Assembly: GCF_000379025.1 (NCBI RefSeq)
Contig: NZ_KB900620.1
Location: 1 to 54,701 of the forward strand
Direction of reading: 5' to 3'
DNA from: Orenia marismortui DSM 5156
Lineage (GTDB): Bacteria > Bacillota > Halanaerobiia > Halobacteroidales > Halobacteroidaceae
Length of the DNA: 54,701 bases
Numbering within the stretch: position 1 is the first letter of the stretch; the number at the start of each line of letters is the position of its first letter. Made by a program: the position numbers and the translations under genes. Shown piece by piece: positions 6,852 through 18,260 of this stretch. The notes below the pieces were generated by a model. It had not been told where the DNA came from, did no database searches, and saw nothing but the letters and a program-made list of their open reading frames with translations.

Positions 6852-6893
6852 AATGGTGGGGATAAGCGGTCTCGAACCACTGACCTCTACGAT
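6852..6893 (-). repeat. attL: 42-bp copy of the tRNA-Val(GAC) 3' end
   Basis: Forty-two bases are identical to 15930-15971, covering the 3' half of tRNA-Val(GAC) from the anticodon loop through CCA plus two flanking bases. The rest of the tRNA is absent here. This is the expected scar where a tyrosine-recombinase element integrated into the tRNA gene. Confidence 0.93.
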
Positions 6894-7140: not shown

Positions 7141-7543
7141 TATATCCAAATTTATTGTAATTTTAACTTGGCCTGAAAATGCTTTTAAAGATCCTAAGGC
7201 TTTGAAAGCATTTATTTATACAGATGTTTCATTAGATACAGTAACTATCTTAAAATATTATTGTAAGCGTTGGCCTATTGAAATATTTTTTAGACAAGAA
7301 AAATCATTATTAGGTCTTGATAACTATCAAATCCGTTCAATTAAAGGCATAGAAAGAATTTGGATTTTACAAGCATTAGTTCATTTATTTTGTACTATTG
7401 GTTTAGATCAACCTATGAAATTTGGTAAAGGCATTTTAAAAGTTAGAAAACAAAGTAAAAAAGATTATATTAAATGGATTTATAATTGTGCTAAAGGCAA
7501 TATACCATTAAATAATGTTTTTCAGTTTTTAAAAATAACCTAG
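7141..7543 (+). pseudogene. IS4-family transposase, C-terminal fragment
   Basis: The open plus-strand stretch reads GISKFIVILTWPENAF, then YYCKRWPIEIFFRQEKSLLG. The latter is a perfect Y(2)R(3)E(6)K signature of IS4-group transposases and holds the last catalytic Glu of the DDE triad. The first two acidic residues and the N-terminal two thirds are missing, and no terminal inverted repeat is evident. It is a dead remnant whose left boundary coincides with the truncation of the preceding gene. Confidence 0.85.
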
Positions 7544-7555
7544 GGATTGGTCTAA

Positions 7556-7927
7556 TCACTTGATTCCAAAAAATGTAATGAGTTTTGCTCGTTTATAGTT
7601 ATTATCTGATTTACGTCTTGCTTTAGCTCCTATATCACTTCTTACTTTTGTAAGAATCCACTCTGAATCTATATTCTCCTCAATATCAATAAGTTCATAT
7701 ATATCAGTATAAGATGGTTGATTCTTTTTGAGTTTCTCATATTCTTCTTCATCTCCAAATCCAAATATATAAGGTTCTTCCCAATTAAAATCTTCAATAC
7801 CAGTTACCTCACAAGGAAGCTTTAAATTTTCTTTTAAATATTGAAAATAGGTATTAAGTTCTTTCTGAAAAGAATAGTCCCTATCACCAAGAATTATATT
7901 TATTCTCCATTGTCTAGCTCTCTCATC
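7556..7927 (-). pseudogene. Degraded gene of a CcbP-like (calcium-binding family) protein
   Basis: One hundred twenty-three codons are open with no start codon: a TAA lies immediately upstream and there is no ATG, GTG or TTG near the beginning. The sequence has RQWRINIILGDRDYSF, LPCEVTGIEDFNWEEPY, then IFGFGDEEEYEKLKK and AKARRKSDNN. I recall a similar pattern (LPFxVTGxEDFxWEE, VRRKSD) in a small plasmid and island protein family annotated as calcium-binding. The C-terminus looks frayed after RRKSD. Probably inactive; family call tentative. Confidence 0.45.
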
Positions 7928-8145
7928 TTAAACTCTATCTTTCAACTCTTAATTTCTAATTATCAACTTTGCTAACATAGCATCTCTAAGTTTATATTCA
8001 AATACTAAAAGTATTCCTGCCTAAAAATTAAAAGTATATTTTATTTCAAAGTATAGAAGTATAGCTTTACAATGTCATATCTCAATCCTAAAATAATAAT
8101 CACACCTATTCTAATCAGCCATTTTAACCTTATATTCTATAGATT

Positions 8146-8391
8146 TTATTTCCTAATTTTAGTTCCACTATACGCAAATTGGTCTCTATTCATCTTGACA
8201 TAATTTCTTTGACCTTTGGACCTAATCTCTCCTATTAAATTATCATAATTGCTACATAATAGTTTCTTACCTTTAACCTTAGCATATATTTTTCTAATCT
8301 TATCTTCCCAACAACATAAGACTTTACCTTGTCCTATCTTCTTATACTTCATAATTTTAAATTTACATTTGGCACATTTAATAATTAAAAT
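8146..8391 (-). CDS. Small zinc-ribbon-like protein, possibly decayed
   Basis: The frame can be read from an ATT at 8389-8391, which follows GGGAGG by 8 nt, and gives 81 residues starting LIIKCAKCKFKIMKYKK. An internal ATG at 8352 gives 68 residues. A first CxxC (CAKC) is clear only in the longer form. The second pair expected in such zinc ribbons reads CSNY, as if a Cys codon changed to Tyr. The C-terminus (VKMNRDQFAYSGTKIRK) is basic and similar to small ribbon proteins I have seen in clostridia. With neither a normal start nor a complete metal site it may be a pseudogene. Confidence 0.4.
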   Translation of the reverse strand: MLIIKCAKCKFKIMKYKKIGQGKVLCCWEDKIRKIYAKVKGKKLLCSNYDNLIGEIRSKGQRNYVKMNRDQFAYSGTKIRK

Positions 8392-8454
8392 ATTACTTCC
8401 TCCCTTAAACCAATGCTTTTATAATTATTCTCAAATCTAAATACTTGAAAAATT

Positions 8455-8748
8455 TTAACAAGGACATTCCTCTCCTTGATCTAATAACTCTACAATATCT
8501 TCTCTACTCCAATCATTATCTAATGGATTTTTACTCTCTCTACAGCTTGGGTCACTATATCTATTTATTATCTCTTTTGGACTGAACTGATGTATATCCA
8601 AATTCTCTATATCTTGACTTCCAATTCTATAACCATTAGGAGTCGTACAAATATAGACCATATCATAGCTTAGATTTTGACCTTCAAATGTCCCTACAAA
8701 ATAAAATCCTTGTCTACCTTTACAGTAAAAGTATTCAATTAGTTTCAT
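8455..8748 (-). CDS. Hypothetical protein (97 aa)
   Basis: Start chosen at the ATG at 8746-8748 because GGGGTG lies 5 nt upstream; an earlier in-frame start is not supported. The product begins MKLIEYFYCKGRQGFYFVGTF and ends GEECPC, with five cysteines in total. I do not recognise a family. The ribosome binding site sits in a possible hairpin (minus ACACCCTATT ... GGGGTGTTTTT), which could also act as a weak terminator. It follows the HIT gene in the island after 141 bp and may be a separate unit. Confidence 0.55.
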   Translation of the reverse strand: MKLIEYFYCKGRQGFYFVGTFEGQNLSYDMVYICTTPNGYRIGSQDIENLDIHQFSPKEIINRYSDPSCRESKNPLDNDWSREDIVELLDQGEECPC

Positions 8749-8889
8749 AAAAACACCCCGATATTCCATTTAATAGGGTGTATTCTACCCTTTCTACTAT
8801 AAACTATGTACCATTAATAATTGTATAATAAAAAAACAGCAAATATAGCTAATATTAACCATATTAACTGCTTATATGTAATAAATACT

Positions 8890-9264
8890 TTAACCATCAT
8901 AAGGTACTAAATTCGGCATTAATTTTCTAATTCCACCCCTAGGATTTTCAATATCTCCTTTATATCTAGGGATTATATGTATATGTAAATGCATAATAGT
9001 CTGACCTGCTGTTTCTCCAACATTAACTCCTATATTATATCCATCAGGACTGTAGAGCTTATCCAATTTTTCTTTACCTTGATTAATTAAATCATAAATA
9101 TCATTCATCTCTTCTTTACTTAATTCAAAGAAACTACTAAAATGTCTTTTCGGTATTATTAATAAATGACCTTTATTTACTGGATACTTATCAAAAATCG
9201 CAAAACTGAATTGACTTTCTAATATAATCTCTAATTCTTCTGTATTACAGAATATACATTCCAT
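8890..9264 (-). CDS. HIT family (histidine triad) protein
   Basis: The 124-residue product has the N-terminal CIFC motif, PVNKGHLLIIPKRH and the catalytic histidine triad MHLHIHIIPR (His92, His94, His96). HIT proteins hydrolyse or transfer nucleotidyl groups from adenosine or dinucleotide substrates. Length is normal and active-site residues are intact. It is the third gene of the island cassette, 32 bp after the MazG-like gene and presumably cotranscribed with it and the helicase. Pairing two nucleotide-processing enzymes with a helicase-nuclease suggests a joint role in nucleotide signalling or DNA metabolism, which is inference. Confidence 0.92.
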   Translation of the reverse strand: MECIFCNTEELEIILESQFSFAIFDKYPVNKGHLLIIPKRHFSSFFELSKEEMNDIYDLINQGKEKLDKLYSPDGYNIGVNVGETAGQTIMHLHIHIIPRYKGDIENPRGGIRKLMPNLVPYDG

Positions 9265-9296
9265 TATAAAGACCTCTCTTTAGAAAAATTATAAAA

Positions 9297-9608
9297 TTAA
9301 TCATAAACCTTCAATAATTTTAATCTCTCCTTAAATCCTCCGCGCTTTTCAACTTTCTCACTTCTAATCTTATCAACTTCTTCTAAAGTAACTTCTTTAA
9401 GATCTATAATAGCATACATTACTTCTAAAATATCAGCTAATTCTTCAACCTCTTCTGATTCTATATACTCATTGACTTCTTCTAGTAACTTCTTTTTTAA
9501 GTATGACTTGTACTCTACCTCATCCATAACCTCTACTTCATATTCTTTCCCTGACTCTTTAATAATACCTGGTATCCTATCTCTGATTAATTTATCATAT
9601 TTTTTCAT
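9297..9608 (-). CDS. MazG-like nucleoside triphosphate pyrophosphohydrolase
   Basis: The 103-residue product has the all-alpha NTP-PPase pattern: KLIRDRIPGIIKESGK at the start, the metal-binding EEVNEY helix, and EELADILEVMYAI with the second acidic pair. Members hydrolyse NTPs or dNTPs to monophosphates; this short RDRIP-type subgroup is often labelled phosphoribosyl-ATP pyrophosphohydrolase-like. Its ATG overlaps the helicase stop codon as TAATG, so translation is probably coupled. It sits between the helicase and the HIT gene in the island. The exact substrate is unknown. Confidence 0.88.
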   Translation of the reverse strand: MKKYDKLIRDRIPGIIKESGKEYEVEVMDEVEYKSYLKKKLLEEVNEYIESEEVEELADILEVMYAIIDLKEVTLEEVDKIRSEKVEKRGGFKERLKLLKVYD

Positions 9609-11995
9609 TAATCTCTCTCCTTAAATCTTCTTCTAAAGTAGTTTAACTCTCTATATTTTAAGATATCAATAAAATGTTCTGTTAAATCCTCTGTTAAATA
9701 AGGCTTCAACTCTTCATCTAACATAAACCTTTTATTCACTTCATCATGGATAAAAAACTTCCTCTTACTTAAAAACTTTACGGGATTTTTTACTGCTTCT
9801 TTGATAAACTTATCCTTGTCCCAATTTTTCCAATTTTTATGCCTCTTGTTATTTAAATCCTTTTGATGAAGTTTGTAATTCTTATAATAATCCCTGAAAG
9901 TCTCTCCTACTTTCTTAATACTCGCTTCACTTTTTAATCTCTCATCATCTAATAAAGCTAATAAAGTAGGTATCTTATAAGACTTACTCATGCTTGTTTT
10001 TTCTAATTCAATTAAAAAATCTTCAACTATAGTATCTATCCACTTTTTCTCATTATCCTTCAATTCACCAATAGATTCTAAGAACCTAAGATAACCTTTG
10101 TGTTTCTTTCTAAGGTACTCTTTTATATCTATATCTATCCCCTCATAGATATCCTTTCTTAATGGTCTTCTACCTAAATAATTCTTTAATCTAAAGTATT
10201 CATCTTCCATACGCTTTCTTAATGGGTCTCTAGTTGCCATTTCCTTAAATAAGTCCATTATTTGCAAATCAAAAGATACCTTACAATCATCTGGATATTC
10301 AAATTCATCAATATCTCTAAAATTATTCTTTTTATTCTCCAAAGGGTTTTCTCCTGATAAAAGAAGAGGTATATAGTGTGCTCTTTTATAATTACCGATA
10401 AAATCAAGCACTTTTAAAGATTCTTTACCTGAACCTTTATCTTTTCTCAATCCTCTACCTAATTGTTGTAAGAAAATCGTATAAGATTCCGTTGGTCTTA
10501 AAAATAACACAGTATCTAAAGCAGGTATATCTACTCCTTCATTAAATATATCTACTGCAAAGATAACATCTATTTCTCCTTTTAAAAACTTATCAATTGC
10601 TTCATCTCTCTCCATAAAATATTGCTTTTGATTATTTGAGCTATGTACAGAGACTGCTTTGATATTATTATCATTAAAATATTTAGCCATATAATCTGCA
10701 TGATTAATAGAGGCACAAAAACCTAAAGTTCTTTTACCTGCTAAGTTATTGTAATGCTTTAAAATTAAATTACCTCTCTGATGAGTAGATAGATTCTTCT
10801 CTAAATCTTTGATATTATATTGTCCATTAGACATCTTTACCTTGTCATAATCTACCTCATAATCATAAATACCATAATACTTAAAAGGAACTAGCAACCC
10901 CCTATTAATTGCATCCTTTAAATAAATCTCATAGATAATATTATCATCACATAATTCATTAATATCTTTATTATCCATACGATAGGGTGTAGCTGTAAGA
11001 CCTAATAAAAAATCAGGTTCAAAATAGTCAAGAATTCTCTTATAACTATCTGCTGCTGCATGATGAAATTCATCAATCACAATATACTTGAATTCATCCT
11101 TTTTAAAGTACTCATCATTCAAATAATCTTCTTTACTCAAGGTCTGAACACTAGCAAATACTGCTTTACCACTCTTATCTTTTTCTTCCCCATTGAAAAA
11201 ACTAGTCGTTAAGCTAGGTTCTATTCTTTTATAAGATTTTTCTGCTTGCTTTAAAATCTCTTCTCGATGAGCTACAAATAAAACCTTATCAAATTGAATC
11301 GAGTCAAAAGCTGCTAAATAAGTTTTACCTATTCCAGTTGCTGCTATAACCATACCCTTGTTATATCCTTCTTCCCTCGACAACTTCAATTCATATAGTG
11401 CTTCAATCTGTGCCCCTCTTGGTTCTGGAGTTTTTATCTCAGTATTATTTTCTTCTGCTTCAGACTTATATATTTTAGGCTTTTTCCAGTTACTAGCATA
11501 GCTGCTTAGTATCTTATCATCTATTATAATTGATTCCTTATTAAAAACCTTATCAAACTCTTCTTCAAATTTCTCATAAGAACTTGGGTCATTATTTTCA
11601 GCTAATCTATAATTCCATTCTACTCCTGAGACTAGAGCAGAATATGAAATATTAGAAGATCCTATAAATAATACTTTCTCCTTATCATTTTTAAAGAAAT
11701 AAGTCTTAGGATGAAATGATATATTCTCTTTGGAGAAAAATCTTAAATCAACCATATCACCTAACTCATATTTTAATAAGCTTAAGGCAGATGGTTCAGT
11801 GATATTGAGATATTTACTAGTAATAATCTTTATATCTGCACCTTTTAATGCTTGCTTCTTTAAATCCTTAACAATTAATTTAACACCTGATTCTCTTAAA
11901 AAAGAAACTATTATTTTAATCTCTTTAGCCTTACTTAACTCTTCTTTGAAATGGCTGTATAGTGAGATTTCTCTTCCTGTTATAGAGTTTAGCAT
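9608..11995 (-). CDS. PLD-nuclease / superfamily 2 helicase fusion
   Basis: The 795-residue protein starts with a phospholipase-D-like nuclease domain (1-150) with FHPKTYF (His95, Lys97) and IGSSNIS. A DEAD/DEAH-type helicase follows: Walker A ATGIGKT (219-225), Walker B DEFH (308-311), GLTATPYRMD (332-341), EGVDIP (near 465) and QQLGRGLRKD (near 490). A roughly 270-residue helical C-terminal domain (LGRRPLRKDIYEG and on) has no clear assignment. Such fusions are found in defence or DNA-repair islands. All motifs look intact. GGGAGG precedes the ATG. It is the first gene of a three-gene set with MazG-like and HIT, coupled by TAATG to the next. Confidence 0.9.
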   Translation of the reverse strand: MLNSITGREISLYSHFKEELSKAKEIKIIVSFLRESGVKLIVKDLKKQALKGADIKIITSKYLNITEPSALSLLKYELGDMVDLRFFSKENISFHPKTYFFKNDKEKVLFIGSSNISYSALVSGVEWNYRLAENNDPSSYEKFEEEFDKVFNKESIIIDDKILSSYASNWKKPKIYKSEAEENNTEIKTPEPRGAQIEALYELKLSREEGYNKGMVIAATGIGKTYLAAFDSIQFDKVLFVAHREEILKQAEKSYKRIEPSLTTSFFNGEEKDKSGKAVFASVQTLSKEDYLNDEYFKKDEFKYIVIDEFHHAAADSYKRILDYFEPDFLLGLTATPYRMDNKDINELCDDNIIYEIYLKDAINRGLLVPFKYYGIYDYEVDYDKVKMSNGQYNIKDLEKNLSTHQRGNLILKHYNNLAGKRTLGFCASINHADYMAKYFNDNNIKAVSVHSSNNQKQYFMERDEAIDKFLKGEIDVIFAVDIFNEGVDIPALDTVLFLRPTESYTIFLQQLGRGLRKDKGSGKESLKVLDFIGNYKRAHYIPLLLSGENPLENKKNNFRDIDEFEYPDDCKVSFDLQIMDLFKEMATRDPLRKRMEDEYFRLKNYLGRRPLRKDIYEGIDIDIKEYLRKKHKGYLRFLESIGELKDNEKKWIDTIVEDFLIELEKTSMSKSYKIPTLLALLDDERLKSEASIKKVGETFRDYYKNYKLHQKDLNNKRHKNWKNWDKDKFIKEAVKNPVKFLSKRKFFIHDEVNKRFMLDEELKPYLTEDLTEHFIDILKYRELNYFRRRFKERD

Positions 11996-12400
11996 AATAG
12001 CCCTCCCTATTTTATTACGTAATCTTTTCGTTGAACTTAATTACTGTTTAAAATTTTTTTGATAAACCCATAATTCCATCTTTAAGACTCTTCTATTTTT
12101 TATTGTAAATGCCAGTAAAAATTAAAATTAACTATACTTAACTAATATCTTATAATGACTTTTCAATAATTATAGATAAAATAAAAAACACAAACCATAA
12201 AAAAATAAATATTGGTAAATCTATCCCATTTATTCTATAAAAATTATCTTTTCCCTTTTCATTTATAGTAAATTATTTAACAATTACTATAAAGTTACTT
12301 CTTTATCTTATATTATAAACTAAAAAAAGGATGTAAGCTTTAGCCTACACCCTAAATTTACTGCATTATATTCAATTATTTTGTAACTATCTTATCCATC
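11996..12400. other. Spacer upstream of the helicase operon
   Basis: No gene is evident. A terminator for the next gene upstream lies at 12322-12353 (minus GGGTGTAGGCT / GCTTACATCC then TTTTTTT). The remaining 300 nt must hold the promoter of the helicase-MazG-HIT unit, but I find only loose TATAAT-like words and no convincing -35. Confidence 0.5.
12322..12353 (-). terminator. Terminator after the 101-aa hypothetical gene
   Basis: Minus-strand hairpin GGGTGTAGGCT with GCTTACATCC, followed by TTTTTTTAG, 50 bp after the stop codon at 12401. Confidence 0.75.
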
Positions 12401-12706
12401 CTAAAACTCCTTATCCCACCTAACCTTATACTCCCCACGATCCAGCTCCAACTTCAACCCCTCTTCCTTCTTAACCTTAGCCTTCAACCTATTCTCAACC
12501 TTCTTTTTACTCTCATTACCAATCTCATAACCAGCCTCCTCCAACTCACTCAAGACCTTATCCAATAAATCATTAATGCTATTTAATGAATCATTCTCAG
12601 GGAACTCCAGTAATACTCCATCAATCACATCATCAACCTCTGCTAAAACAAAAGCTCCAGTCCTAAAATAAGGATCTAAGCCTGGCTTCCACTTCCTCAA
12701 TCCCAT
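12401..12706 (-). CDS. Hypothetical island protein with atypical codon use (101 aa)
   Basis: Read from the ATG at 12704-12706, the product begins MGLRKWKPGLDPYFRTGAF, continues VLAEVDDVIDGVLLEFPEN, and has a lysine-rich, probably coiled C-terminal half. No strong ribosome binding site is visible and an alternative TTG lies 15 nt upstream. I do not recognise the family. Codon use is strikingly different from neighbours, with many GAG, AAG, TTG and GTT codons rather than A-ending ones. That suggests recent arrival from another genome. A terminator follows. Confidence 0.6.
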   Translation of the reverse strand: MGLRKWKPGLDPYFRTGAFVLAEVDDVIDGVLLEFPENDSLNSINDLLDKVLSELEEAGYEIGNESKKKVENRLKAKVKKEEGLKLELDRGEYKVRWDKEF

Positions 12707-14451: not shown

Positions 14452-14723
14452 GTGCAGAAAAATCAACAATTATCATTAGATATCCTCCCTACAGAATCAG
14501 ATTATATTAATAGAATTAACTCTATGATGAAGGATTTAGACAATATCCAGCAGGTTCCTTAGAAAGAATTCCATTCTTCTTTGAAAAAAGGAGATTACTA
14601 CGAATTAAACAAAGAATAGAGCGATTGGATACCCTCTTATTAAGGGAAAATAATCACAATATAAAAAAGGAGATGAAAAAATGGGTCATATCAGAAAACA
14701 AGGTGAAAACACCTGGGAAATAA
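14452..14723 (+). pseudogene. Frameshifted small gene upstream of the integrase
   Basis: A GTG at 14452 after AGGCGGTGG opens 36 codons (QKNQQLSLDILPTESDYINR and on) ending at 14562. The +1 frame from about 14553 continues as GSLERIPFFFEKRRLLRIKQ, then RIERLDTLLLRENN, to 14723, overlapping the integrase start by 43 nt. Together they make a roughly 90-residue basic, helical protein of the kind found before integrases in Firmicute elements (possible excisionase or regulator). The shift lies at CAGCAGGTTCC. It may be a mutation or, less likely, programmed frameshifting. Confidence 0.5.
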
Positions 14724-15826
14724 CAATCAGTACTGGAAAAGACCCTGTTACAGGAAAATATGGACGGATATATGAAACTGTTCAAGGGAATAAGACTCAA
14801 GCTAAAAAAAGAATGATGGAATTAGAGTATGAATTAGAACATAGCACTTATATTAAGCCTTCAGAACTAACTCTTAGCGAACTGTTACATCAATGGTATC
14901 AAGACTATGCCCAAACTAATTTAGCTCCATCTACACAGGAATATTATGATATTATAATCAATTCTCATATAATTCCTTTGTTAGGTGGGATTAAAATATC
15001 TGATCTTGAACCTATGCATATCCAAAGATATTTAAGTGAAAAATTAAGAAATGGTAGATTAGATGGAAAATCTGGTGGTCTATCTAATAAATCTGTTAAG
15101 AGGCATTATACTGTCATTAATCAGGTTTTGAAATATGCTGCAAAGTTACAGGTAATTGAGAACAATCCAGCTAAATATGTTGATCCACCCAAACCAGAAA
15201 ACCCAGAAATTCAAGCCCTTAAGCAAGAAGAATTAGAAAAAATATTAGATATCGCTAAAGGATGGATTCATGATTTTATTTATATTGCTGCCTTCACAGG
15301 AATGAGAAGAGGTGAGCTATTAGCTTTAAGATGGAAGGATGTTAATTTTAAAGATAAGTCACTACAAATAAGACAGAGTGTAAGTAAGCTCTCTGGAGGA
15401 AGGTTAATCTATAGAGAACCCAAAACCAAATCAAGTATAAGACTAATAAGTATTGATGATGATATTGTCAAAATATTAAAATGTCGGAATAAAGAGCAGA
15501 AAGAAAATAAATTAAAATTAGGAAGTCAATATAATAATAAGTATAATTTAGTTTTTGCTAAAGAAAATGGTGATCCTTATCTGCCTTTATATACAACAAG
15601 ACAATTTAATAAAGTTGCTGAAAAAGCTAACTTATCCAATTTTAGATTACATGATCTAAGACATACCCATGCCACTCTTATGTTACAAGCTGGAATCCAT
15701 CCAAAGATAGTCCAAGAGAGATTGGGCCATTCTTCAATTACTCAAACTCTAGATACCTATTCTCATATAACTCCTTCAATGCAGAGAACAGCTGTTCAAA
15801 AACTTAAAGATAGTTTAAAGAAATAA
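14681..15826 (+). CDS. int: Tyrosine-recombinase integrase of the island
   Basis: The 381-residue phage/ICE-type integrase has an N-terminal arm-binding domain (GENTWEITISTGKDPVTGKY), a SAM-like core-binding domain (about 60-165), and a catalytic domain with every expected residue: Arg209 in TGMRRGE, Lys near 248-250 (PKTKSS), His324 and Arg327 in HDLRHTH, His350 in LGHSS and Tyr360 in DTYSH. AAGGAGATG precedes the ATG. It ends about 105 bp from the tRNA-Val(GAC) 3' end, the attachment site. It is the only plus-strand gene of normal length in the island and the reason the element could integrate and excise. Confidence 0.97.
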   Translation: MGHIRKQGENTWEITISTGKDPVTGKYGRIYETVQGNKTQAKKRMMELEYELEHSTYIKPSELTLSELLHQWYQDYAQTNLAPSTQEYYDIIINSHIIPLLGGIKISDLEPMHIQRYLSEKLRNGRLDGKSGGLSNKSVKRHYTVINQVLKYAAKLQVIENNPAKYVDPPKPENPEIQALKQEELEKILDIAKGWIHDFIYIAAFTGMRRGELLALRWKDVNFKDKSLQIRQSVSKLSGGRLIYREPKTKSSIRLISIDDDIVKILKCRNKEQKENKLKLGSQYNNKYNLVFAKENGDPYLPLYTTRQFNKVAEKANLSNFRLHDLRHTHATLMLQAGIHPKIVQERLGHSSITQTLDTYSHITPSMQRTAVQKLKDSLKK

Positions 15827-15929: not shown

Positions 15930-15971
15930 AATGGTGGGGATAAGCGGTCTCGAACCACTGACCTCTACGAT
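15930..15971 (-). repeat. attR: 3' part of intact tRNA-Val(GAC)
   Basis: This 42-bp block is identical to 6852-6893. It ends in the anticodon loop of tRNA-Val, a common crossover point for tyrosine recombinases. The integrase gene lies just beyond it. Confidence 0.93.
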
Positions 15972-16007
15972 GTCAACGTAACGCTCTCCCAACTGAGCTA
16001 TATCCCC
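15932..16007 (-). tRNA. tRNA-Val (GAC)
   Basis: The 76-nt cloverleaf has acceptor GGGGATA / TATCCCC, D arm GCTC...GAGC, anticodon loop TTGACAT with GAC, T loop TTCGAGA and encoded CCA. It is the last of the seven-tRNA operon and the integration site of the island. Because its natural terminator was carried 9 kb away, transcripts now run into the island end, where ATCAATG / CATTGAT with a downstream T-rich run (15870-15914, minus) may replace it. Confidence 0.96.
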
Positions 16008-17039: not shown

Positions 17040-18260
17040 TGCAATATAAAATGCACGGTTTTTTATTTACTCAATACCTCATAAATTTTAAGCTGCCTTT
17101 AACTGTTCTTCAAATATATAATTTGCATTCTTAAACCCAAACATTTTTCGTGGATAATTATTTATCCATCGCTCAATTCTTTTAACTTCATTTCTGCTAA
17201 TATTCTTAAAGCTACTTCCTTTTGGTAAAAACCTTCTAATCATTTTATTTAAATTCTCATTACTACCTCTTTGCCAAGAACAATAAGCATCAGCATAATA
17301 TTGACTAGTTCTTGAGATATCACTTCCTGTAAAGGAAGTTTCTATCCCTTCATAATCATAGAATTCTTTACCATTATCTGTAGTTATAGTTTTAAATAAG
17401 TCTCTAAATTTTCTAACTCCTATTCTTCTTTCTACGCGATCTAATCCTTTTATTACAGATTCTTGAGTCTTATTAGGTATTAGTTCTATTATTTCTTTGC
17501 GACTATATCTCTCTGTTAAAACTAATAAAAAGGGCTCATCTTTACCTTTCCTACCCTCTACTAAGTCCATTTCCCAATGACCTATTTCTGACCTTTTATC
17601 AGCTTCCTTAGGCCTATCTGATATCTTTCTTCCCTCTTTTCTCTTTTTGTTGATTCTTTTTCTTTCTGTTTAGATTTATTAGTCTTTTTATATCTACCAT
17701 AAACCAAATCTTCTCTATCTATAAACAGAATGCCTTTATCTATATAATTATATATCGTCTTCCAATGTATTTTAATTTCAAACCCATCATCCTCTTTAAT
17801 CATCTCTGCAATTACCTCTGGAGAATAATTTCCTTTATTTTTTCTTCTATGAATTCAGCTAATTGATGATCTTTTCCTATTTTAATCTTAGCTCCTTTAG
17901 CAGTCGCATTGTTATCATATAAGTTTTGAGCTATATCAGCATCGTATTCTATTCTTTTAGTGTAATCTGAATTTAATAATACAAGCTTTCCCCTTTCAAT
18001 TTCTCGACTTATTGTCGTCCTATGCCTCCCTAACTCTCTTGCTATTGCTGTCTTCGATTTGTTTTGTATATTATATAAATGTTCTATTATCTTTCTCTCT
18101 TCCCACTTTAAATGTTTTCCTTTTCTACTTTTTGTGTTATAATTATTTTGGCACATATTTAATACCTCCAATGTTTGCTTTGGTCAGTTAACATTATATA
18201 TGAGGTATTAATGTGTGTCATTTTTTATTTTTTGAACTATCCGTGCATTTAATTATACAA
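17040..18260 (-). mobile_element. IS30-family insertion sequence, inactive
   Basis: About 1.22 kb with related ends: TGCAATATAAAATGCACGG at 17040-17058 and, inverted, TGTATAATTAAATGCACGG at 18241-18259. It contains one interrupted IS30 transposase. A 15-bp direct repeat TTTTTATCTGAAAAT lies outside the ends (17019-17033 and 18267-18281), longer than the 2-3 bp IS30 usually duplicates. The exact ends are therefore uncertain. Confidence 0.8.
17088..18171 (-). pseudogene. IS30 transposase, split into three frames
   Basis: The N-terminal part (17812-18171) has the helix-turn-helix SKTAIARELGRHRTTISREI. The middle part (17582-17803) has EIKIHWKTIYNYIDKGIL. The C-terminal part (17088-17570 and slightly upstream) has the DDE core with EMDLVEGRKG, ITTDNGKEF and WQRGSNENLNKMIRRFLPKG. 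Frames change near 17815 and near 17630, and the first fragment ends in a stop (IILQR). All catalytic residues survive, but no single protein can be made without two frameshifts, so the copy is dead. Confidence 0.88.

What the first reader, a model, noticed from the sequence alone, without database searches (positions are those of the whole stretch)
8890..11995. Candidate defence or stress cassette: PLD-helicase, MazG-like and HIT genes
Seen: a coupled three-gene set (TAATG overlap, then 32 bp) in a tRNA-borne island. A PLD nuclease is fused to an SF2 helicase with an unassigned helical tail, followed by two nucleotide-processing enzymes with complete active sites. All neighbours are decaying while these three are intact, suggesting selection. 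Known: PLD-helicase fusions occur in restriction and defence loci, and NTP pyrophosphohydrolases can deplete nucleotides in abortive infection. Inference: DNA recognition by the helicase-nuclease combined with nucleotide hydrolysis could give anti-phage or anti-plasmid immunity. I do not know a named system with exactly these parts.
Basis: partly seen in the sequence, partly recalled or inferred. Interest (0 to 1): 0.7.

Follow-up and report, generated by a model that had tools for sequence, protein, structure and literature searches.

The report
Restriction nuclease operon with nucleotide enzymes
Three bacterial genes on a small mobile island belong to a widespread, conserved anti-invader operon: a motor-driven DNA-cutting enzyme related to known restriction enzymes that attack chemically modified DNA, with a previously unrecognised C-terminal domain that probably reads the DNA, and two small nucleotide-hydrolysing enzymes that travel with that domain.

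Summary
The cassette lies in a 9.1-kb tRNA-Val island (42-bp att repeats), absent from that site in two congeners.

The 795-aa protein is a SauUSI-like (type IV) PLD-SF2 helicase, not a housekeeping helicase. It belongs to a distinct clade ("SHORT") lacking SauUSI's DUF3427/SRA reader.

The linkage is real. In 398 phylum genomes, 26 of 37 SHORT loci have the MazG-like gene nearby and 15 the HIT gene (about 0.03 expected). Of 66 non-redundant loci, 64 carry MazG, HIT or a class I methyltransferase. The other two lie in DISARM and dnd loci.

New: the "unassigned helical tail" is a portable winged-helix-like domain (Y673, K674 and P738 nearly invariant). HIT or MazG genes accompany all three, and one protein fuses the tail to HIT.

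Best reading: a modification-dependent (type IV-like) restriction enzyme with a new reader domain and reader-linked nucleotide hydrolases. Abortive nucleotide depletion has no support.

Speculative: the tail's closest solved folds are phosphorothioate-DNA sulfur-binding domains (Z about 8, tied with other winged helices), and human HINT1 desulfurates dNMPS, so the mark could be DNA sulfur. Function is untested.

The parts
9608..11995 (-). HEL, 795 aa: PLD nuclease + SF2 helicase/translocase + C-terminal tail domain (SauUSI-like, 'SHORT' clade)
   Evidence: Pfam, PDB 7clg SauUSI E 7.8e-84, Foldseek top hit 7clg, tree
11516..11995 (-). HEL residues 1-160: PLD/BfiI-like nuclease domain, H95-x-K97, N115, E126
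   Evidence: PF13091 1.1e-12; residues conserved in 42-43 of 43
10361..11428 (-). HEL residues 190-545: SF2 ATPase (ResIII + Helicase_C), K224
   Evidence: PF04851 1.9e-38, PF00271 7.8e-17
9611..10048 (-). HEL residues 650-795: portable tail domain, candidate DNA reader (Y673, K674, P738)
   Evidence: AF2 model pLDDT 90, VIA Z about 8 to sulfur-binding domains tied with ORC/Cdc6 winged helices, same domain on McrB-like GTPases and on a HIT protein
9297..9608 (-). MZG, 103 aa: MazG-like (COG4997-type by recall) all-alpha NTP pyrophosphohydrolase
   Evidence: conserved acidic residues, homologs annotated as NTP pyrophosphohydrolase, adjacent to HEL in 26/37 panel loci
8890..9264 (-). HIT, 124 aa: histidine-triad nucleotide hydrolase, H92-L-H94-I-H96
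   Evidence: PF01230 1.3e-22; triad invariant; adjacent to HEL in 15/37 panel loci
8455..8769 (-). 104-aa ORF of unknown family, also next to the trio in genome G004 (optional cargo)
14681..15826 (+). tyrosine integrase of the island
   Evidence: PF00589 1.3e-26
6852..6893 (.). distal att repeat (42 bp copy of the tRNA-Val 3' end)
15930..15971 (.). att repeat at the intact tRNA-Val (15932-16007)

Best explanation
A mobile-island restriction operon. HEL probably works like SauUSI: a dimer of PLD nucleases carried on an ATP-driven SF2 translocase that cuts invading DNA after a C-terminal domain has recognised a chemical mark in it. Shown here: gene order, intact active sites, conserved linkage, clade structure, portability of the tail domain, its reader-like position in McrB-type proteins, and its link to HIT and MZG. 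Inferred: cleavage, modification dependence, and what the hydrolases do.
For: SauUSI is the best match by sequence (7clg, 7.8e-84), by PADLOC profile (mREase_IV 2.4e-89) and by Foldseek. SauUSI mechanism: PMC7913695. SHORT is one side of a branch separate from LONG/DUF3427 proteins (support 92), which do carry DUF3427. HEL lies next to a LONG gene in L052, L055, L085 and L218-L220. MZG/HIT adjacency 26/37 and 15/37 against about 0.03 expected; 64/66 loci with MZG, HIT or MTase. The nuclease is swapped (weak MTES_1575 matches) while helicase, tail and HIT stay together. The tail domain lies at the N-terminus of McrB-like AAA_5 proteins (three checked with DUF2357-PDDEXK_7 McrC partners), which sit next to HIT or MZG, and is fused to HIT in L222. 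Defence neighbours.
Against: No activity is shown. HEL's tail has no detectable sequence similarity to any known reader. Many MZG and some HIT relatives occur away from any tail protein, and MZG relatives are common in viral contigs, so neither enzyme is specific to restriction. The SAM methyltransferase partner is not explained. HEL could instead cut unmodified DNA in concert with a partner system, as the place of one relative beside dndACDE in L060 might suggest.
Confidence: 0.6

Rival explanations
1. Abortive infection by nucleotide depletion: HEL senses foreign DNA, MZG and HIT then hydrolyse nucleotides and stop the cell.
For: NTP hydrolases are known effectors in other systems (general knowledge); the genes are co-transcribed by arrangement.
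Against: HEL already carries an intact nuclease; MZG and HIT are each often absent and can be replaced by a methyltransferase; HIT is fused to a candidate DNA-binding domain without any sensor in L222; MZG and HIT classes are usually house-cleaning enzymes.
Confidence: 0.1
2. Regulatory nucleotide chemistry: HIT/MZG/MTase make, change or destroy a small molecule that licenses or switches off the nuclease, as proposed for the HIT protein ThsC of Thoeris type II.
For: ThsC precedent and its proposed off-switch role (PMC8565338); PADLOC ThsC profile matches HIT at 9e-14; interchangeability of three small-molecule enzymes.
Against: No cyclase or TIR-like signal maker in the conserved unit; association with the tail domain across different machines is better explained by a shared target.
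Confidence: 0.17
3. The tail is a DpnI-type winged-helix reader of N6-methyladenine, making HEL a 6mA-dependent enzyme.
For: Winged-helix 6mA readers are known on PLD nucleases and on NTPase/McrC-type systems (PMC11037411); the tail's fold matches include many winged helices.
Confidence: 0.12
4. Housekeeping repair or stress helicase (RadD/UvrB/XPB-like) with nucleotide house-cleaning genes.
For: RadD is among the next best helicase matches (E 2e-22).
Against: SauUSI is about 60 orders of magnitude better by E-value; patchy distribution (37 SHORT loci in 398 genomes), location on a mobile island, defence neighbours.
Confidence: 0.04

Closest known systems
SauUSI (type IV, modification-dependent ATP-dependent endonuclease; PDB 7clg; PMC7913695)
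   Same: Single chain, N-terminal PLD nuclease with one HxK, SF2 ATPase, helical C-terminal region; best match over residues 12-640.
   Different: Lacks the DUF3427/SRA target-recognition domain; ends in the Y-K/P tail domain; forms its own clade; has MZG/HIT/MTase partners.
PbeA of DndCDEA-PbeABCD (PMC6459918)
   Same: PLD + ResIII + Helicase_C order; defence role; a true PbeA/PbeC pair lies close to a SHORT-MZG pair in G076.
   Different: Much weaker profile match than SauUSI-type; no PbeB/C/D or dnd genes in the window; very long branch away in the tree.
McrBC-like (AAA_5 GTPase + DUF2357-PDDEXK_7) systems
   Same: Some carry the same tail domain at the N-terminal reader position, next to HIT or MZG.
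   Different: Different motor and nuclease.
Sulfur-binding domain (SBD) of ScoMcrA/SprMcrA/Hga enzymes (PMC6224610, PMC7470945)
   Same: Top three fold matches of the tail (Z 8.0-8.2); near-invariant Y673-K674 and P738 can be laid on the sulfur-pocket pairs H116-R117(K) / Y31-Q32 and P165 / P79.
   Different: No detectable sequence homology; different partner nuclease; Z tied with ORC/Cdc6 winged helices.
Thoeris type II ThsC (PADLOC; PMC8565338)
   Same: HIT protein as an accessory of a defence system.
   Different: Different effector; HIT here tracks a restriction reader domain.

Membership tests
SauUSI-type type IV restriction enzyme | N-terminal PLD nuclease with HxK active site | tested here: met
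   PF13091 1.1e-12; H95 42/43, K97 43/43
SauUSI-type type IV restriction enzyme | SF2 ATPase in the same chain, SauUSI as nearest relative | tested here: met
SauUSI-type type IV restriction enzyme | C-terminal SRA/DUF3427 target-recognition domain | tested here: not met
   no DUF3427 in HEL, present in LONG proteins L079, L052, L085; HEL is 795 aa against 953 for SauUSI
SauUSI-type type IV restriction enzyme | modification-dependent, ATP-dependent cleavage | not testable with these tools
   needs protein
PbeA (Dnd-Pbe) | linked to pbeBCD and dnd genes | tested here: not met
   ORFs around the trio on the island were read and scanned: none is a Pbe or Dnd gene; PbeA profile 4e-38 against mREase_IV 2.4e-89; no DndC in the own genome
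RadD repair helicase | full-length RadD match over cut-off | tested here: not met
   127 bits against cut-off 720
HIT superfamily | HxHxH triad and HIT fold profile | tested here: met
   PF01230 1.3e-22, triad invariant
MazG-type all-alpha NTP pyrophosphohydrolase | conserved acidic metal-binding residues | tested here: met
   E43, E44, E47, E56, D59 invariant in 13 homologs
MazG-type all-alpha NTP pyrophosphohydrolase | profile match to a solved member | tested here: inconclusive
   best PDB match 7bgm (HisI/HisE-type protein) E 0.023; MazG-like entries at E 0.5-0.9; no Pfam hit
DNA sulfur-binding domain (SBD) | SBD fold | tested here: inconclusive
   VIA Z 8.2/8.1/8.0 over 116-122 residues, rmsd 3.3-4.0, tied with ORC/Cdc6 winged helix 7.8; Foldseek alone found nothing significant
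DNA sulfur-binding domain (SBD) | pocket residues (H/Y, R/K/Q, P) | tested here: inconclusive
   Y673 57/58, K674 54/58, P738 56/58; correspondence laid by hand, not by a scored alignment
DNA sulfur-binding domain (SBD) | sequence-profile homology | tested here: not met
   hmmsearch, phmmer and hhalign negative; the SBD alignment was shallow
Named PADLOC defence system with these three parts | system model containing PLD-helicase + MazG + HIT | tested here: inconclusive
   only single-protein matches (mREase_IV, ThsC); system-level rules were not run

The most novel reading that the evidence does not exclude
The tail domain is a sulfur-binding-like reader of phosphorothioated DNA. HEL is an ATP-dependent phosphorothioate-targeting restriction enzyme. 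HIT removes sulfur from the nucleoside 5'-phosphorothioates left after shredding, a reaction human HINT1 performs on dGMPS (PMC8775712), and MZG hydrolyses thio-modified nucleoside triphosphates. Supporting hints: the sulfur-binding fold matches, the conserved Y-K and P residues, and the one SHORT protein beside a dndACDE writer (L060) having lost the pocket proline and the partner enzymes. More broadly, a single new reader module with its own nucleotide-cleaning enzymes serves SauUSI-like, MTES_1575-helicase and McrBC-like machines.
Probability: 0.2. Interest if true: 0.88.

Novelty: new variant of a known kind. Interest (0 to 1): 0.62.

Why it matters
It identifies a widespread restriction family in Bacillota (also seen on contigs assigned to Spirochaetota, Chloroflexota and archaea) that lacks the known SauUSI reader, and an uncharacterised portable domain in its place. 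If that domain reads a DNA modification, it adds a new reader to the type IV repertoire. The consistent partnership with HIT and MazG enzymes would then be a first case, as far as I know, of restriction systems carrying dedicated nucleotide-cleaning enzymes. It makes testable which mark is read and why host nucleotide pools would need protection. I found no paper describing this combination in the open-access library searched.

Tried and rejected
Housekeeping RadD-like helicase: rejected. PbeA membership: rejected. Literature search for the trio, DUF3427 and MazG with type IV restriction: nothing on the combination. Profile search of the tail against PDB sequences, phmmer of an MTES-type tail, and hhalign of the SHORT tail to a six-sequence SBD alignment gave no support for SBD homology. 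Pfam accession PF26340 for the SBD does not exist in the library. The SBD search query was composed by hand from memory; its matches to solved ScoMcrA/SprMcrA chains validate it, and the 5zmn/7cc9 fragments used later come from tool output. True DndC genes occur in only 4 of 376 panel genomes, too few to test avoidance between SHORT and dnd. Phage collection: no MZG match, but viral contigs hold many MZG relatives.
Full report
Observation. The three ORFs, their overlap and their spacing are exactly as described. Pfam assigns PLDc_2, ResIII and Helicase_C to the long protein and HIT to the last; the middle protein has no Pfam family, but its relatives are annotated as nucleoside triphosphate pyrophosphohydrolase and its acidic residues are invariant. 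The cassette lies between 42-bp copies of the tRNA-Val 3' end at 6852 and 15930, with an integrase next to the tRNA. In two congeners (L197, L198) the left flank is contiguous with the tRNA and the 9.1-kb island is absent. A homologous trio sits elsewhere in genome G004, not at its tRNA-Val, so the cassette has moved. dN/dS between these copies is 0.066-0.086 with dS near saturation.

Is the trio more than chance? In 398 genomes of the phylum, 37 places match the HEL profile to its C-terminal end (the 'SHORT' family). MZG lies within 5 kb in 26, mostly 8-70 bp away or just beyond HIT, and HIT in 15; ten have both and 31 at least one. Random placement predicts about 0.03. The LONG, SauUSI-like proteins (mostly 950-1100 aa) are a built-in control: 37 of 44 have neither. 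Among 66 non-redundant SHORT loci from all sources, 64 have MZG (31), HIT (18) or a ~200-aa class I SAM methyltransferase (27) within 1.5 kb. The two exceptions lie beside DISARM drmAB (L075) and beside dndACDE (L060). The partners change 15, 10 and 7 times on the tree, so the linkage recurs rather than being one frozen inheritance. HIT and MZG are also found fused to each other in one ORF (L054, L281 and others).

What is the helicase? SauUSI (PDB 7clg) is its nearest solved relative by sequence (7.8e-84 over residues 12-640) and by Foldseek; RadD trails at 2e-22. PADLOC's best profiles are type IV methyl-directed enzymes. SauUSI is a dimeric PLD nuclease whose ATPase translocates on DNA and shreds DNA between target sites; its target is read by a C-terminal SRA domain behind a helical coupler (PMC7913695). 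SHORT proteins lack DUF3427, which LONG proteins carry, and form their own clade. SHORT and LONG genes are neighbours in L052, L055, L085 and L218-L220.

The tail. Modelled alone, residues 555-795 give a confident fold (pLDDT 90). Foldseek finds nothing significant. VIA ranks three sulfur-binding-domain chains first (8h0l Z 8.2, 7ccj 8.1, 7ccd 8.0), followed at once by ORC/Cdc6 winged helices at 7.8; at this level the match may be only a shared winged-helix-like arrangement. A profile of the tail then found the same domain elsewhere. It is at the C-terminus of helicases whose N-terminus carries a weak MTES_1575 nuclease match instead of PLD. It is at the N-terminus of McrB-like AAA_5 proteins, in the place where McrB readers sit; three of their downstream genes were checked and are DUF2357-PDDEXK_7 McrC-like nucleases. 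And it is fused to HIT itself in L222. The McrB-like cases lie next to HIT or MZG, several within about 10 bp. In all, roughly half of the 54 HIT genes and half of the 63 MZG genes of this kind in the panel lie beside a tail-domain protein. Y673 is kept in 57, K674 in 54 and P738 in 56 of 58 tails. HIT was also seen next to a GmrSD-type gene (L214).

Mechanism. The economical reading is that the tail recognises something in DNA, that three different nuclease-motor machines use it, and that HIT and MZG deal with nucleotides connected to the same thing. A phosphorothioate target is attractive. The sulfur pocket of ScoMcrA needs H116, R117 (K in most homologs) and P165 (PMC6224610), that of SprMcrA Y31, Q32 and P79 (PMC7470945), and the tail's most conserved residues can be laid on these. 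HINT1 turns dGMPS into dGMP and H2S (PMC8775712). The single SHORT protein beside a dnd writer has lost the proline and the partners. DndC/BrxP-like genes lie near SHORT or MZG in a few panel genomes. But sequence methods gave no link to sulfur-binding domains, the residue mapping is by hand, the L060 case is one example, and defence genes cluster anyway. Winged-helix readers of 6mA on PLD nucleases and McrB-like NTPases are an established alternative (PMC11037411). I hold the type IV-like reading at about 0.6 and the sulfur version at about 0.2.

Surroundings. Genes within about 3 kb of SHORT loci include DndACD, DrmA/DrmB, Wadjet JetA/JetC, type I REase, HEC-06, a BrxP-like protein and PtuA-type profiles, and a PbeA/PbeC pair lies close by in G076. 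This supports a defence role qualitatively; I did not run a matched background, so it is not a measured enrichment.

Verdict. It is a new variant of a known kind (type IV-like restriction) with an unusual and testable accessory chemistry.

Noticed in passing
L090-L096 (e.g. L091:5968-6522): Stand-alone ~185-aa proteins made only of the PLD nuclease part (36-39% identical to HEL residues 3-172), i.e. split versions of the enzyme in Bacillota MAGs.
   Followed up: no
L057:5333-5953, L058:5348-5956, L084:5402-5992 and other SHORT loci: A ~200-aa class I SAM methyltransferase (Methyltransf_25/11, TehB-like) adjoins SHORT where MZG and HIT are mostly absent; its substrate is unclear.
   Followed up: partly
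L074:8746-12108 = L275:11261-14623: An 1121-aa protein between SHORT-MZG and PbeA-PbeC in G076 with no PADLOC match.
   Followed up: no
L062:9000-10712, L088:9001-10713, L212:9094-10806: A 571-aa protein close downstream of MTase-SHORT in Selenomonas and relatives; the L062 copy matches BrxP (PADLOC 1.8e-84) and the region in G087 matches the DndC profile weakly.
   Followed up: partly
L203:462-4766 and 7630-12483: HIT-MZG fusion ORF flanked by 1435-aa and 1618-aa proteins; the first has no convincing Pfam domain, the second was not scanned.
   Followed up: no
window 7202-7543 and 17088-18171: Transposase-like remnants at the left part of the island and beyond the tRNA cluster.
   Followed up: no
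L200 (G004:C8:409322-409564): A second partial copy of the ytxC-like sporulation gene near tRNA-Val in G004, in the interval used by islands.
   Followed up: no
L294/L384 (IMGVR_UViG_3300001598_002864): A viral contig that carries both a HEL-like helicase segment (43% identity, residues 216-534) and an MZG homolog close together.
   Followed up: no
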